Shown piece after piece: positions 46,446 to 52,193 of a DNA stretch of 52,193 nt (the first letter of the stretch is position 1; each line of letters begins with the position of its first letter). Under the pieces are notes generated by a model. The model was not told the origin of the DNA. It saw only the letters and a program-made list of their open reading frames with translations, and did not search any database. The stretch spans positions 1 to 52,193 of the forward strand of contig JABSRN010000119.1 of the NCBI GenBank assembly GCA_013214025.1, written 5' to 3'. Source of the stretch: Polyangiaceae bacterium. Its GTDB lineage: Bacteria; Myxococcota_A; Polyangia; Polyangiales; Polyangiaceae. Made by a program: the position numbers and the translations under genes.

Positions 46446-46475
46446 AAAAACGGCGCTCTGAGGAGCGCCGTTTTT
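46446..46475. terminator. Bidirectional intrinsic terminator shared by tsf and the lasso operon
   Basis: AAAAACGGCGCTC pairs exactly with GAGCGCCGTTTTT around loop TGAG, a 13-bp stem. The plus strand ends TTTTTCTTTTG after the GC stem; the minus strand ends TTTTTGCG. It lies 24 bases past the tsf stop and 51 bases past the stop of the minus-strand precursor gene at 46527, so it can end both converging transcripts. Confidence 0.9.
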
Positions 46476-46526: not shown

Positions 46527-46694
46527 CTAGCCGCTGTTGGTGAAGGTAGGGATTTCGGAGGTATGTGACTGCGGTCCGCTCTGCGTAATATCAGCGATAT
46601 CCCCAAACTCGGTGAGCTGCGGTTTCGTATATGCGCGACGGGCTGGTGAGTCGTTGGTCTCCGCTACTTTTTCGTTTTTGCGGGGATTGGTCAT
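46527..46694 (-). CDS. Lasso peptide precursor (55 residues)
   Basis: Small ORF with AAGGA eight to nine bases before the ATG at 46694. Leader residues 22-37 read YTKPQLTEFGDIADIT, an exact match to the lasso-leader consensus YxxPxLxxxGxxxxxT that is read by the RRE protein. The Thr at leader position -2 places cleavage after Gln38. The predicted 17-residue core is SGPQSHTSEIPTFTNSG. Glu sits at core position 9, so a Ser1-alpha-amine to Glu9 side-chain macrolactam (nine-residue ring) with an eight-residue tail is predicted. Adding residue masses and subtracting water gives a neutral mass near 1727.8. It is last gene of the B1-B2-K-C-A operon, 84 bases after C. Confidence 0.9.
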   Translation of the reverse strand: MTNPRKNEKVAETNDSPARRAYTKPQLTEFGDIADITQSGPQSHTSEIPTFTNSG

Positions 46695-46778
46695 ACTGGC
46701 ATTCCTTGGAAGGATGAATTCACGTAAATTGTGGTCATCTGGGCGGGGAGATCAAGGGACATTTCAGGATTCGTTGGG

Positions 46779-48509
46779 TCAGGGAGTAGGCGGGAGCGGT
46801 CGGAGGTTGGCGCAGGCTTCATCGAGCATGCTTAACATCAAGGCTTCTCCCAGTGAGCAATCTGCCCCATAAAACAAGGTTTTCTGCTCGGTAATGCCCT
46901 CGAGGAGCTGCGGGTACTTTGGTTGCCAGGACCCCCGATAACATTCACCGAACCCGCGACCCTTGTCGACTCGCATCACGTTTTTCTCTGGCAAACGTCC
47001 TCGCATCACGGGCCGAATGAGCTGCCGGCTGGTTGACGTGAGAAGTTTGCGGATTGGGCAGCGGTAGGCAAATTCTAGGGCTTCGCGGGAGAAAAATGGA
47101 GCGCAGAGCCGGACGTCGTGCTCCGAGAGACGCTCCCACATGGTTTCCGGCCAAGAGGCGTTTTGCTCTCGCATGTACAACCCCATCTGAGGGCTACGGT
47201 CGTCCCTGAAGGAGCGAACCCGGTCTGCCCGATAGTCGCTGTATTCCTGATGTACCTCCGCCGACATTGTGCGGTGAAGCTTGTGGGGAAGATGGATGGG
47301 CGGGAACCCAGCAGCCCGGCGCAGCTGATGAGACAGCCACGCCTTTGGAGTGCGCAACCCCAGGGGCCAGTCCCTGGGCTGACGGAGCGCTTGAGGAAGG
47401 CTCGTCGCGTAGCACCAATCCTGCAGCCTTCGGAGCGTGCCCTGCGCCTCGTCGGCGAACTCGCCGCTGACCACGACCCGGGGGCGCTCGTCCGATGGCA
47501 GCTCCAGGCTCGCCAGGGCTGCCGGGTTGGGCAATCCGAAGAGCGTGCTGTTCCCCCGCAGAACCGGGGAGGCGAGAAGTCTCTCGTCGAAGAGCGTGCG
47601 CCGTCCGTTGCCGATGTCGAGTTGAGCCAGCGCCCCGTCGATGAACGGCAATTCATGCTCGCGCCAAGAGCGATTGTCACTCGTAATCGTCAGCGTACTG
47701 AAGGGGCGCTGGATGTCCCGCGCCAGCACTGCAGCCAGCGCCGATGAATCGACGCCGCCACTGAACCAGAGCAAGCTGGGGTGTTTGTCGGGCAGTTCAC
47801 GCGAGAAACTCTGGATCAGGATTTCTCGTAGCTCCCGAGACAGCTCTGCAGCACTCAAGGGGCTCAGCTCGGCATCGGACGTCGGCCGGGGGTGCCAATA
47901 GCGGACCAGCTGGGTTTTCGATCGCCGACCGATATGAGCGACGTGCCCGCGGGGGATGCATCGACTGTGGCGTAGTTCGGCTCTGCCGGCGGGCCGGGCC
48001 CCCGTGCCTGTTACGGTCAATGCTACGGCCAGCGGATCGAAGTGATGGTCCCCCGGGATGAAGCGCGGAAAATACGCAAGGCGCGTGGAGACGGCTAACA
48101 CCTCGCCGTGTTCATAGACGTAGAGCGGGACATACCCGCCGCAGGGGCGGACGAGATTGGCGCTGCCGTCCTCAGCGAAGTGCACCCAAGCGAAATCGCC
48201 AGGCAGGGTCGCGATTTTTTCGGGTCGATCGCGCCCGAAGGCGATTAGGCGCTCGGCGTCTTCGCCGCGAGATTCTTCAGTGGTCAAAAGGGCGCTCGCG
48301 CCTTGCAGGATCACCAAGTTGTCCCGGGCGCGGAACACGCCGTCATCCACTTCACCAAGCGGAGCGAGACCGGCGATCCAGCTCGCCGCAGGAGACCACA
48401 CCGCCCGGAACCGGGGGGATGTGGTCATGGCATCGCCGACGGCGCGTCGTTGGTCGGGGTCCGCCGTCCGGAGGGCGAAGAAGTCCGAACACGGGTAGGG
48501 ATCACTCAC
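46779..48509 (-). CDS. Lasso peptide macrolactam synthetase (asparagine-synthetase-like, C protein)
   Basis: The 576-residue AsnB homologue is predicted to adenylate the Glu9 side chain and close the ring. An N-terminal Ntn-like region (to about 210) lacks the catalytic Cys2 of glutaminases, as in lasso cyclases: residue 2 is Ser. The synthetase domain carries the ATP pyrophosphatase loop SGGVDSS (250-256) and, later, GEFADEAQGTLRR, where AsnB proteins have GxGxDExxxGY. GTG at 48509 overlaps the kinase stop (GTGA). A longer frame to 48677 lies inside the kinase gene and is rejected. Confidence 0.88.
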   Translation of the reverse strand: MSDPYPCSDFFALRTADPDQRRAVGDAMTTSPRFRAVWSPAASWIAGLAPLGEVDDGVFRARDNLVILQGASALLTTEESRGEDAERLIAFGRDRPEKIATLPGDFAWVHFAEDGSANLVRPCGGYVPLYVYEHGEVLAVSTRLAYFPRFIPGDHHFDPLAVALTVTGTGARPAGRAELRHSRCIPRGHVAHIGRRSKTQLVRYWHPRPTSDAELSPLSAAELSRELREILIQSFSRELPDKHPSLLWFSGGVDSSALAAVLARDIQRPFSTLTITSDNRSWREHELPFIDGALAQLDIGNGRRTLFDERLLASPVLRGNSTLFGLPNPAALASLELPSDERPRVVVSGEFADEAQGTLRRLQDWCYATSLPQALRQPRDWPLGLRTPKAWLSHQLRRAAGFPPIHLPHKLHRTMSAEVHQEYSDYRADRVRSFRDDRSPQMGLYMREQNASWPETMWERLSEHDVRLCAPFFSREALEFAYRCPIRKLLTSTSRQLIRPVMRGRLPEKNVMRVDKGRGFGECYRGSWQPKYPQLLEGITEQKTLFYGADCSLGEALMLSMLDEACANLRPLPPTP

Positions 48510-49450
48510 CGCGTTGGCTTTCGGTCGCTGAGGGTTAGCAGGCAGGTTTCCAGCTCGATTTGTCCGGCACTTGTCAGCAGCCTGTCGAAGCTGCCGTTCA
48601 ATCGGTACACGGGCACCCGACGGGCCAACGAGGCCGTGGCGCTGAATTGTTGTTGCATCAAATTGGCGTCGTTCCAACAGCTGATTCGGTTCGAGGCGAT
48701 GAGCGCGATGAGCGCGCCTCGCCCCTGCAGGGGGGCAAGCGCCAGGGGGCCCTCCTCAGTGAATTCCGGGCAAATGACGGCCGAGAGGCTGTAGGAACTG
48801 GGCTCCCACCACGGGGCACGAACCCCCAGGCGCTGGTCGACGGACTCGACGAGCTCGGTCTGATCGGCAGATGCTGCGGCCACGGCGTTCTCCCTTAGCC
48901 GCAGTTCCGTGCAACCCAGCGCGCACTCGACCTCATCGTCGGTGAGCGTGTAGCGGAGAGCGTCGTCAGTGACGACGCTCGCGCCGCGGCGGTGAAGCGC
49001 TGCGGCGGTTGTCGATTTGCCGCTACCGCTGGGTCCGGAAAATGCGAAAATTTCCCCGTCGAGGCAGACGGCACTGGCATGCAGGACGTGCTGCCCCCGG
49101 AGCACCAGCAGGACAGAAAGCACGTTGCTGGTAGCGTAGAGTGAGGCTAGACGCTCGTCCGCGTCGGGCGCGAGATGAAAAATTGCGCGGTCCAGTCCCG
49201 GGTTGATGACGATGTCGCAATTGCCAAAAAACCGGATGTGGTAGTCGGCTTCGGACCGACTTACAGCGTAGCCCTTGGCGCCTTGGAAGCTCAGCTGTCC
49301 GAGCAAAACACCAGGGGGATCGAGGTTCGGCACTTCTCGGCGCTCCCCCAGTCTCATCCTGACGTCCGGCTCCCCGCGTCCCTCCACCGAGGGCGCCCAC
49401 AGCTCCAGCTCGGATTCGATGTTCAGCCCGTACAGGCGATACGTTCTCAT
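48506..49450 (-). CDS. HPr-kinase-like lasso peptide kinase (K protein)
   Basis: The 314-residue protein has the HPrK/P-like kinase fold signature: VLHASAVCLDGEIFAFSGPSG with Walker A GPSGSGKST (139-147), a His at 124 and the acidic TDDAL (162-163). In Firmicute and proteobacterial lasso clusters of the paeninodin type, such kinases phosphorylate a C-terminal Ser of the precursor. Here the precursor ends Asn-Ser-Gly, so Ser16 of the core (penultimate) is the candidate. It starts four bases after B2 and overlaps C. Confidence 0.82.
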   Translation of the reverse strand: MRTYRLYGLNIESELELWAPSVEGRGEPDVRMRLGERREVPNLDPPGVLLGQLSFQGAKGYAVSRSEADYHIRFFGNCDIVINPGLDRAIFHLAPDADERLASLYATSNVLSVLLVLRGQHVLHASAVCLDGEIFAFSGPSGSGKSTTAAALHRRGASVVTDDALRYTLTDDEVECALGCTELRLRENAVAAASADQTELVESVDQRLGVRAPWWEPSSYSLSAVICPEFTEEGPLALAPLQGRGALIALIASNRISCWNDANLMQQQFSATASLARRVPVYRLNGSFDRLLTSAGQIELETCLLTLSDRKPTR

Positions 49451-49454
49451 GCGT

Positions 49455-49925
49455 TTAACGGTTCAGGGTCGAGAGGGGACGGTAGTCACCGGAGCCGCCC
49501 GCTTCGTTCTCTGTGGCCAGCAGCAGCGGTGTCCCGTTGACCGTCAACCACGCGTGGGCCTCGAGCCCCTCGTCCGCGTGTCGGACTCCCAGATGTAACT
49601 CGGGAGCGTGTTGACGGAGCAAGTGCCCGAGCACGAGAGCGCGGCGCAGACAGCTCGCGTCTCCGGGCCAGTGCCGATACACAGCGTCTACGGTCCACAG
49701 CGGCGTGGTGAAGTCGTCCGCGCGACTAGGCGGCGGCGAGTTGGACGGATCGGTGCCCGCCAATCGTACGCCCAGAGCGCGGGCGATATCGGGCACCGGC
49801 CGGCGTCCAAGAGATGCACTAACAAAAGAGACGGCCAAATAGGCGTTGGCGACTTGTAGTTTTTTTTCTGAGGGCCACTTCCAAGCGCGCTTGCATTGGG
49901 CGATGAGCGTGGCTATCCGGTTCAT
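49455..49925 (-). CDS. Lasso peptide B2 leader peptidase (transglutaminase-like)
   Basis: The 156-residue protein is the size of split-B lasso peptidases. An N-terminal helical part is followed by the papain/transglutaminase-like core with catalytic Cys92 in DASCLRRALVLGHLLR and His124 in LEAHAWLTVNG. It should cut the leader after Gln38 once B1 presents it. The third catalytic residue, usually Asp about 12 residues after His, is not obvious (the segment reads TPLLLATENE), so Glu or Asn may serve. It overlaps B1 by four bases (ATGA). Confidence 0.85.
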   Translation of the reverse strand: MNRIATLIAQCKRAWKWPSEKKLQVANAYLAVSFVSASLGRRPVPDIARALGVRLAGTDPSNSPPPSRADDFTTPLWTVDAVYRHWPGDASCLRRALVLGHLLRQHAPELHLGVRHADEGLEAHAWLTVNGTPLLLATENEAGGSGDYRPLSTLNR

Positions 49926-50194
49926 GGCGTTTTGTTGTCCAGGAGCAATCCGCGCTGGGTCAGGTCGCCCAGCAATTCTTCAAGGTCGCGGTTGAGAGTG
50001 GGTTCGTCGACGTCGAACTCGTTGGACATTTCCCGAACCACCGCTGGCAAATCGCCATGTTGTAGTAATAACTCCCACGCTCTCGACCCCACTGGATCGA
50101 GGCCAAAATACACGCCGGTGTTCAGATTCAGCAGTACGGTTTCGCCGCTGTGGGACTCGCCGATGACGTGAGCGGGGGCCGAATAGCGGTTCAT
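49922..50194 (-). CDS. Lasso peptide B1 recognition element (PqqD/RRE domain)
   Basis: The 90-residue protein is a stand-alone RiPP recognition element of the PqqD fold. It has three N-terminal strands, SAPAHVIGESHSGETVLLNLNTGVYFGLDPVG, then winged helices ending LEELLGDLTQRGLLL. It should bind the YxxPxL leader segment and deliver it to B2 and C. The ATG at 50194 gives the family length but has no clear ribosome-binding site; the frame is open to 50401 with implausible sequence. First gene of the cluster. Confidence 0.85.
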   Translation of the reverse strand: MNRYSAPAHVIGESHSGETVLLNLNTGVYFGLDPVGSRAWELLLQHGDLPAVVREMSNEFDVDEPTLNRDLEELLGDLTQRGLLLDNKTP

Positions 50195-50535: not shown

Positions 50536-52193
50536 ATGATGAGACGGTCACTTAGCTTGTGGGGACCTGTCGCGTTGGCGATGGGAGTGGCATTGGTAGC
50601 GTGCAGCGATAGCGGCTCGCCGGGCGGTAGCGTCACCCCTGGCGGAAGCGATACCGGCACGGAGGATGGCGCAGAGGGCGGCGCTGACTCCTGCGATGTC
50701 CAGTTCTTGACGCCGGCGTCGACCCTAGCCCCTAGTGATGACGCGGACGGCGATTGCAGCAACGGCTTCAATATCGATATTGGCGTTGCAACTCGCGCGG
50801 GGTCGGGAACGGCCACGTTGACCTCCGGCGACGGACAACCCGTGACCAACGGAACCGCGGAAGTTTCGGGCCCAGCGGTGGTGTTCTCGGATATCTCTCT
50901 CGATCCCAACGCCACCACGGAAATCACAGTGACGGTCGGTGAATGCACGGCAACGCGTTCGTTTGAAGTTGTGTGCCCCGGTGTTCCCACCTGTTCGATC
51001 GCTTCCCCGCTTCTTACAGACTCTCGCCCGAGCTTGAACGGTGAGGCGGCTCCGGCGGGCGACCGCGTCAACGGGGCTGACCAAGATCTTCAGGTCGAGT
51101 TTACGGTAGCGACAAACGTTGCTGATGGACAGCTTGTCACGTTGACGATCAATGACGACGCAAACGCGGCAGTGGCAACAGTGGCTGACGGCGTTGCGAC
51201 TTTTGCGGGCGTAACCTTAGCGCCGGATACGGCGAGCATTCCATTTAGCATCACGGCTACCTGTCTGGCTACTGATGGCAGCTCGGTGCAAAGTGGTTCG
51301 GTCTCCTACTTTGTGGATACCGGCGCCCCTGCCCTGACTGTGTTGGAGCCGGCACCAGGACAACACTTCTCGTTTGAGTCGGGTGATGACGTCAACAGCG
51401 AGCGGGACGAACTTCAGTTCAATGTCTGCGGCAACACGGACAACCCAGACGCGCTGAACCTCTCGCCGGATCTCGGCGAGGCGGCGGCGAACTTTTGCGT
51501 GAGGCGCGGCGTAGAGTCCCCCGTCTGTGCGCCAGCTGTCACCGATGGTGCGGGCTCTGCCGATGGTGCCTGTGTTGAATACGACTGTCCCTCCGGCGCG
51601 CCGTTCACGCTCACCGTCAGCCTCACGGATGCGGCGGGGAACGTGGATAGCCAAGAGATCGTGGAGGTCACTTGTTCGTCCGACAAGCTGGACGTGGTCA
51701 TTATCTCTCCCGCGGATGAGGACCAACTCATCGCTGCAGGTCAGGTGATGCCGCCAGCTGGCACGCTCGATGCCGATGCCAATGAGCCTGGAGGCCAGTT
51801 GGAAGTGATCGCCTGCAGCAGTGCCGCGGTGGGCAGCACTGCCACCCTCTTTGGTAGCGTTCTGGGGAATGACCCCGCAGAGCTGGATCAGGTTGAGCTA
51901 GTGGCTGCCACCGATGACGTCTGTGGCGTGGCTTCCCCGCTGGGTAGCGTGGCTCACTTTCTCGGCAACGGCGCGGGCGTGACCTTGCCGGAGAGCACAA
52001 TCAACTCCAATGGCACCACCATTGACGTGCGCTTGTTTGTCAAGGTAACGGATGAGTCCACCGAGACCGGCCAGTCTGGCGACCATGACGTATGGGTGGA
52101 TACCAAGTTGCCGATTGTCACTTGGGTGAACCCGTTCCCGTCGGCTGGGGCTCAGTACCCGCAGGAGGGGCTGTGTGGATTGTTCCGTTCGCC
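50536..52193 (+). CDS. Large surface lipoprotein with Ig-like repeats (C-terminus beyond the window)
   Basis: Open frame of at least 552 codons from the ATG at 50536 (preceded by GAGGAGAG) to the window edge. The signal ends in the lipobox LVAC (Cys23), followed by a Ser/Gly/Asp-rich linker. The visible mature part is a series of beta-rich, Cys-containing repeats of about 100-130 residues, each with a strand pattern like ITVTVGECTATRSFEVVC or FTLTVSLTDAAGNVDSQEIVEVTC. These resemble bacterial Ig-like (Big) domains of surface adhesins. The role is unknown. It is divergent from the lasso operon and probably independent of it. Confidence 0.85.
   Translation, partial: MMRRSLSLWGPVALAMGVALVACSDSGSPGGSVTPGGSDTGTEDGAEGGADSCDVQFLTPASTLAPSDDADGDCSNGFNIDIGVATRAGSGTATLTSGDGQPVTNGTAEVSGPAVVFSDISLDPNATTEITVTVGECTATRSFEVVCPGVPTCSIASPLLTDSRPSLNGEAAPAGDRVNGADQDLQVEFTVATNVADGQLVTLTINDDANAAVATVADGVATFAGVTLAPDTASIPFSITATCLATDGSSVQSGSVSYFVDTGAPALTVLEPAPGQHFSFESGDDVNSERDELQFNVCGNTDNPDALNLSPDLGEAAANFCVRRGVESPVCAPAVTDGAGSADGACVEYDCPSGAPFTLTVSLTDAAGNVDSQEIVEVTCSSDKLDVVIISPADEDQLIAAGQVMPPAGTLDADANEPGGQLEVIACSSAAVGSTATLFGSVLGNDPAELDQVELVAATDDVCGVASPLGSVAHFLGNGAGVTLPESTINSNGTTIDVRLFVKVTDESTETGQSGDHDVWVDTKLPIVTWVNPFPSAGAQYPQEGLCGLFRS

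What the first reader, a model, noticed from the sequence alone, without database searches (positions are those of the whole stretch)
46527..46694. Unlisted lasso peptide precursor with a predicted new core
The 55-codon minus-strand ORF is short enough to be missed by gene callers. It has a ribosome-binding site, the exact leader motif YxxPxLxxxGxxxxxT (residues 22-37), Thr at -2, and a core SGPQSHTSEIPTFTNSG with Glu at ring position 9. I recall no known lasso peptide with this core. Ser at position 1 is uncommon but has precedent in caulonodins. Phe13 is the only bulky tail residue and is a candidate steric lock.
Basis: partly seen in the sequence, partly recalled or inferred. Interest (0 to 1): 0.93.

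Follow-up and report, generated by a model that had tools for sequence, protein, structure and literature searches.

The report
Lasso peptide precursor with kinase cluster
A short gene in this myxobacterial genome most likely encodes a new knotted "lasso" peptide that is probably tagged with phosphate, and its gene cluster sits beside a large cell-surface protein that relatives keep next to the same kind of cluster.

Summary
The ORF at 46694-46527 (-) encodes a 55-aa lasso precursor: leader motif Y22xxPxLxxxG31xxxxxT37, cut site Q38|S39, core SGPQSHTSE|IPTFTNSG. It ends an operon B1-B2-kinase-cyclase-A (50194-46527). Three relatives keep this five-gene order with a homologous precursor after C; the nearest (G116) also has a 17-aa core with Glu9. 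Of 59 precursors surveyed, 58 have Asp/Glu at core position 7, 8 or 9. The core is new, the kind is known: a kinase-bearing lasso cluster (paeninodin; Bradymonas bsf).

Phe13 as plug is not supported by relatives, whose tails lack bulky residues. Neither known lasso-kinase site is present: the core ends Ser16-Gly17, and position 3 (the BsfK site) is Pro. The kinase tree plus sister cores favour Ser16, then Ser5.

New here: a large FG-GAP lipoprotein, divergent from B1 (50536 to contig end), is kept beside lasso genes in ten further loci. In 14 other loci its family follows PqqD and radical SAM genes, suggesting a surface partner shared by two RiPP machineries. No product, threading or phosphorylation was shown.

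The parts
46527..46694 (-). Gene A: 55-aa lasso precursor, leader 1-38, core 39-55 SGPQSHTSEIPTFTNSG, predicted ring Ser1 (alpha-N) to Glu9
   Evidence: NF033521 lasso leader over cut-off; relatives after C in L045, L047, L049; profile match 6.9e-20
46703..46707 (-). AAGGA ribosome-binding site, 8 nt before ATG
   Evidence: read
46779..48509 (-). Gene C: asparagine-synthase-like macrolactam cyclase, GTG start overlapping the K stop; motif SGGVDSS; 576 aa
   Evidence: PF00733 51.3 bits; alignment A2
48506..49450 (-). Gene K: HPr-kinase-like peptide kinase; catalytic H124, K145, D162, D163 and P-loop GPSGSGKST present
   Evidence: PDB profile hits HPrK 1.9e-8; model pLDDT 86.7 with PEPCK and HprK fold matches
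49455..49925 (-). Gene B2: leader peptidase, transglutaminase-like; Cys92 and His124 conserved
   Evidence: NF033537 63.8 bits, cut-off 33; PF13471; alignment A3
49922..50194 (-). Gene B1: PqqD-type RiPP recognition element, 90 aa (ATG at 50194 preferred over the longer TTG start)
   Evidence: PF05402 59.5 bits; profile matches lasso TbiB1 5v1u at 7e-23; alignment A4
50536..52193 (+). Divergent FG-GAP beta-propeller surface lipoprotein, first 552 aa; the contig ends here, a match to the C-terminal part is on contig C138 of the same genome
   Evidence: conserved beside lasso clusters; FG-GAP and fn3 domains in full-length relatives; contig end; C-terminal part found
46446..46475 (.). 13-bp hairpin flanked by A/T runs, probable shared terminator between tsf (+) and the lasso operon (-)
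   Evidence: the scan finds no more such sites than shuffles do, but this stem is by far the longest

Best explanation
The ORF is the precursor gene of a disulfide-free (class II-type) lasso peptide made by a five-gene operon B1-B2-K-C-A. B1 binds the leader at Y22/P25/L27; K, helped by B1, phosphorylates a Ser of the linear core; B2 cuts between Gln38 and Ser39; C activates Glu9 with ATP and closes the Ser1-Glu9 ring around the 8-residue tail. Gene order, families and catalytic residues are shown by sequence; each enzymatic step is inferred from characterised relatives. The most likely phosphosite is Ser16, next to the C-terminal Gly (about 50%; Ser5 about 30%). What the product does is unknown; the conserved FG-GAP surface lipoprotein next door makes a role at the cell surface worth testing, but that step is conjecture.
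For: Exact motif and null test. B1/B2/C/K families. Same order and precursor in L045, L047, L049. L047's core GNDGPGGPEGRSGVSGG has the same length and Glu9; all four cores of this clade have exactly 8 residues after the presumed acceptor although ring size differs (9, 9, 7, 7), which supports the ring assignment. 58 of 59 cores have D/E at 7-9. Kinase H-K-D-D intact. Kinase tree: window K groups with L047, L045, L049 at SH-aLRT 98; the only Ser/Thr common to their cores is a Ser within three residues of the C-end. Phosphorylation of a core Ser before leader removal, helped by B1, is proven for BsfK (PMC10368454).
Against: No product is known. The tail has one aromatic residue and sister cores have none, so a stable threaded form is not assured; a branched-cyclic product is possible. 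C is only 28-30% identical to its nearest relatives. No transporter gene lies in the cluster. The kinase site is a prediction: Ser5 is favoured by analogy with 22 of 59 cores that have Ser/Thr there.
Confidence: 0.9

Rival explanations
1. Lasso-type operon whose product is phosphorylated in the ring (Ser5, or Thr7/Ser8) rather than near the C-terminus.
For: BsfK acts on ring Ser3. 39 of 59 cores have Ser/Thr at exactly one of positions 3 and 5, versus 24.4 expected from shuffled rings (0 of 2000 shuffles), and the two classes largely separate on the kinase tree. The window core has Ser5.
Against: The window kinase does not group with the position-5 kinases; its three sisters have no Ser/Thr at 3 or 5. 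Shuffles ignore relatedness.
Confidence: 0.3
2. The enzymes make a cyclised but unthreaded (branched-cyclic) or unstable peptide, not a true lasso.
For: Sister tails lack any bulky plug; Phe13 is not conserved. No mature peptide was ever detected from the related bsf cluster in several hosts (PMC10368454).
Against: Full lasso gene set with the leader rule and conserved acceptor position; small plugs are tolerated in some lasso peptides (own knowledge).
Confidence: 0.2
3. Chance ORF after a lasso operon whose real precursor is elsewhere.
For: GC3 of the ORF (0.62) is a little lower than its neighbours' (0.69-0.75).
Against: no other match to the leader motif in the window, and the only other hit in the genome is weak and has a stop inside.
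Confidence: 0.02

Closest known systems
bsf cluster of Bradymonas sediminis FA350 (BsfA/K/B1/B2/C/D/N; PMC10368454)
   Same: Kinase-bearing lasso cluster with separate B1 and B2, YxxPxL leader, bordered by an FG-GAP repeat protein on one side and ribosomal proteins on the other; precursor does not end in Ser
   Different: Bsf: Ile at -2, Gly1-Asp8 ring, Ser3 phosphorylated, has transporter and nucleotidyltransferase. Here: Thr at -2, Ser1-Glu9 ring, Pro3, neither D nor N gene
Paeninodin family (PadeA/K/C/B1/B2; kinases PadeK, ThcoK, SyanK; described in PMC9266682 and PMC8498205)
   Same: HPr-kinase-like enzyme with H-K-D-D residues, B1/B2/C, leader-dependent lasso formation
   Different: Their kinases act on a C-terminal Ser; here the C-terminus is Gly with Ser before it; A is the last gene of the operon
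G116 cluster of the same family (L047; uncharacterised)
   Same: Same gene order, 17-residue core with Glu9, FG-GAP lipoprotein divergent from B1
   Different: Core GNDGPGGPEGRSGVSGG, Gly1; followed by an NTP_transf_5 nucleotidyltransferase; C 30%, K 37% identical
Caulonodins (Caulobacter lasso peptides)
   Same: Precedent for Ser at core position 1 (own knowledge; the title of the paper, in the reference list of PMC13352647, speaks of unprecedented N-terminal residues)
   Different: Fused B, no kinase (own knowledge)

Membership tests
Lasso peptide biosynthetic system | Precursor with leader YxxPxL...G.....T and Thr at -2 | tested here: met
Lasso peptide biosynthetic system | Acidic residue at core position 7-9 as ring acceptor | tested here: met
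   Glu9; 58 of 59 cores surveyed
Lasso peptide biosynthetic system | RRE (B1), cysteine peptidase (B2) and asparagine-synthase-like cyclase (C) in the same operon | tested here: met
Lasso peptide biosynthetic system | Threaded macrolactam product | not testable with these tools
   needs MS and NMR
Kinase-bearing (phosphorylated) lasso clusters | HPrK-like kinase with essential His, Lys, Asp, Asp | tested here: met
   H124, K145, D162, D163; fold
Kinase-bearing (phosphorylated) lasso clusters | Phosphate on the core | not testable with these tools
   needs MS of the product or of the co-expressed precursor
Paeninodin-type | Precursor ends in the phosphorylated Ser | tested here: not met
   core ends Ser16-Gly17; only 10 of 51 kinase-associated cores surveyed end in Ser
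Bsf-type | Ser or Thr at core position 3, Ile/Val at -2 | tested here: not met
   Pro3 and Thr at -2
Lasso peptide biosynthetic system | Dedicated ABC transporter D (often present, not required) | tested here: not met
   none between tsf and the contig end

The most novel reading that the evidence does not exclude
In Polyangiales the HPrK-like kinase and the PqqD-type recognition protein form a module that is combined either with lasso enzymes or with a radical SAM/SPASM enzyme, and in both settings serves a large FG-GAP/Ig-like surface lipoprotein, so that the window's phospho-lasso peptide is a ligand or modifier of that surface protein and not a free antibiotic.
Probability: 0.4. Interest if true: 0.75.

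Novelty: new member of a known kind. Interest (0 to 1): 0.52.

Why it matters
The precursor is one of dozens in a myxobacterial order from which I found no characterised lasso peptide in the library searched. The clusters are nearly all kinase-associated, and their cores break the rule that lasso kinases modify a C-terminal Ser: 38 of 41 kinases beside cores that do not end in Ser keep all four catalytic residues. The core-position classes and the kinase tree give directly testable predictions for phosphosite choice. The conserved FG-GAP lipoprotein offers a first candidate for what such a peptide acts on; the role of phosphorylated lasso peptides is an open question.

Tried and rejected
tBLASTn of the precursor against plasmids found nothing. 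The genome-contig scan with the C alignment found one true relative (the G012 record, titled Polyangiaceae MAG) and otherwise remote Asn-synthase homologs without lasso partners detected. Phe13 as a conserved plug: rejected from sister tails. A 43-aa ORF between C and A (46822-46691), whose stop overlaps the A start, was taken as a chance frame; re-initiation at ATGA is possible. Ring Ser/Thr as evidence for the kinase target was weak when tested as presence or absence (40 of 41 versus 7 of 10), stronger as position 3 or 5. The promoter scan gave nothing beyond chance. PMC4919450 (paeninodin kinase) is not held. B2 has no solved relative by sequence. A greedy gene picker on GC-rich loci chose wrong frames and was dropped for profile searches.

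Full report
What is there. The minus-strand ORF 46694-46527 reads MTNPRKNEKVAETNDSPARRAYTKPQLTEFGDIADITQ|SGPQSHTSEIPTFTNSG. The leader motif is exact, with Thr at -2 and Glu at core position 9. The motif is found once in the six frames of the window. Shuffled windows give 0.03 per window, and none inside a short ORF with an acidic residue at 7-9.

Neighbours. Reading along the minus strand: B1 (50194-49922, PqqD), B2 (49925-49455, lasso B2 equivalog domain at 63.8 bits against a cut-off of 33), K (49450-48506), C (48509-46779) and A. B1/B2 and K/C overlap, B2/K are 4 nt apart, and A follows C after 84 nt with its own AAGGA. A 13-bp hairpin at 46446-46475 separates A from tsf, which runs towards it. 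B1's profile finds the lasso B1 protein TbiB1 at 7e-23. C is an asparagine-synthase homolog with SGGVDSS. B2 keeps Cys92 and His124. K has the four residues His, Lys, Asp, Asp that are needed in PadeK/ThcoK and BsfK. Its model matches PEPCK and HprK structures, which share a fold.

Relatives. The window's genome is 5.77 Mb in 184 contigs. The nearest named record with the same operon is a Polyangiaceae MAG. Three genomes of the same family (G012, G116, G117) have B1-B2-K-C-A in the same order, with a precursor just after C. The G116 precursor lies in a frame that my length filter passed over and was read from the translation: it has Val at the motif's Leu position, a 17-residue core and Glu9. 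In this clade the part after the acceptor is always 8 residues, while the ring is 9, 9, 7 and 7. This constancy supports the acceptor assignment. Wider searches gave 59 precursors. Of these, 58 have Asp/Glu at 7, 8 or 9, and 51 lie with a kinase. The first set was found by the leader motif alone near lasso genes, so the acidic position is not merely a product of the search profile, though later ones were found with a profile that includes the core. Other architectures are common: A-C-K-B1(-B2) and C-A-K.

Phosphorylation. A review states that lasso kinases act on a C-terminal Ser (PMC9266682). The Bradymonas paper shows Ser3 for BsfK, and help from B1 (PMC10368454). In the survey only 10 of 51 kinase-associated cores end in Ser, and 38 of the 41 kinases beside other cores keep H-K-D-D. 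Ser/Thr at exactly one of positions 3 and 5 occurs in 39 of 59 cores against 24.4 expected, and the two classes fall largely on different sides of a well-supported branch of the kinase tree. Shuffles do not correct for relatedness. The window kinase belongs to neither class; it groups (98) with L047, L045 and L049, whose cores share only a Ser at or near the C-end. Ser16 is therefore the best guess and Ser5 the second.

Fold of the product. Phe13 may plug the ring, but relatives' tails have no bulky residue, so threading is not secured by sequence. An unthreaded ring remains possible.

The lipoprotein. A gene divergent from B1 (50536 to the contig end at 52193) encodes a lipoprotein whose relatives are 1230-1490 aa with FG-GAP and, in most, fn3 or Ig-like domains. 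A match to its C-terminal part lies on contig C138. In a spot check of 20 genomes it occurred once each in exactly the six genomes where it stands beside a lasso cluster; these six had been used to define it, so the useful part of that check is its absence from the other 14. In the order-wide search 33 of 184 genomes have it. It adjoins lasso genes in the window, L037 (inside the operon), L045, L046, L047, L049, L176, L205, L206 and L207, and K and B1 at a contig end in L208. In 14 of 16 further loci it directly follows PqqD and a radical SAM/SPASM protein, usually with the HPrK-like kinase before them. Two of those radical SAM proteins were confirmed by Pfam; the rest were found with a model built from these two. 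The bsf paper also reports an FG-GAP protein at the border of its cluster but sets it aside. A functional link is inference from position only. Text searches found only that paper joining lasso peptides with FG-GAP, and none joining FG-GAP, radical SAM and PqqD.

Verdict. A real lasso precursor with a new core; a new member of a known kind in a little-studied order. Its most interesting aspects are the kinase without a C-terminal Ser or Ser3 target, and the conserved FG-GAP partner.

Noticed in passing
window 50536-52193 (+); L037:804-5261, L045:5960-9793, L047:3465-7451, L049:3949-7809, L176:3286-6981: FG-GAP surface lipoprotein kept beside lasso clusters, once inside the operon (L037), and in other families directly after kinase-PqqD-radical SAM/SPASM genes.
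   Followed up: partly
L210, L218, L219, L220, L222, L223, L224 and others: Conserved set kinase, PqqD-like protein, radical SAM/SPASM, FG-GAP lipoprotein in Polyangiales, preceded in L218 by a cyclic-nucleotide-binding protein; no precursor was looked for. It looks like a RiPP system without a described precursor.
   Followed up: partly
59 cores listed: Ser/Thr at core position 3 or 5, seldom both, in kinase-bearing lasso clusters; the two classes follow the kinase tree.
   Followed up: yes
L037, L042, L139, L176 kinases: Four kinases have Gly in place of the last Asp of the H-K-D-D set, three of them beside cores that end in Ser and one beside ...ASNG.
   Followed up: no
L047:11106-12000 (+): NTP_transf_5 nucleotidyltransferase directly after the precursor in G116, absent from the window's cluster; candidate for modifying the phosphate as in pseudomycoidin.
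   Followed up: no
L052, L147, L152: Two precursors per locus with different cores.
   Followed up: no
window 46822-46691 (-): 43-codon frame whose TGA overlaps the ATG of the precursor (ATGA), so re-initiation or coupling is possible.
   Followed up: no
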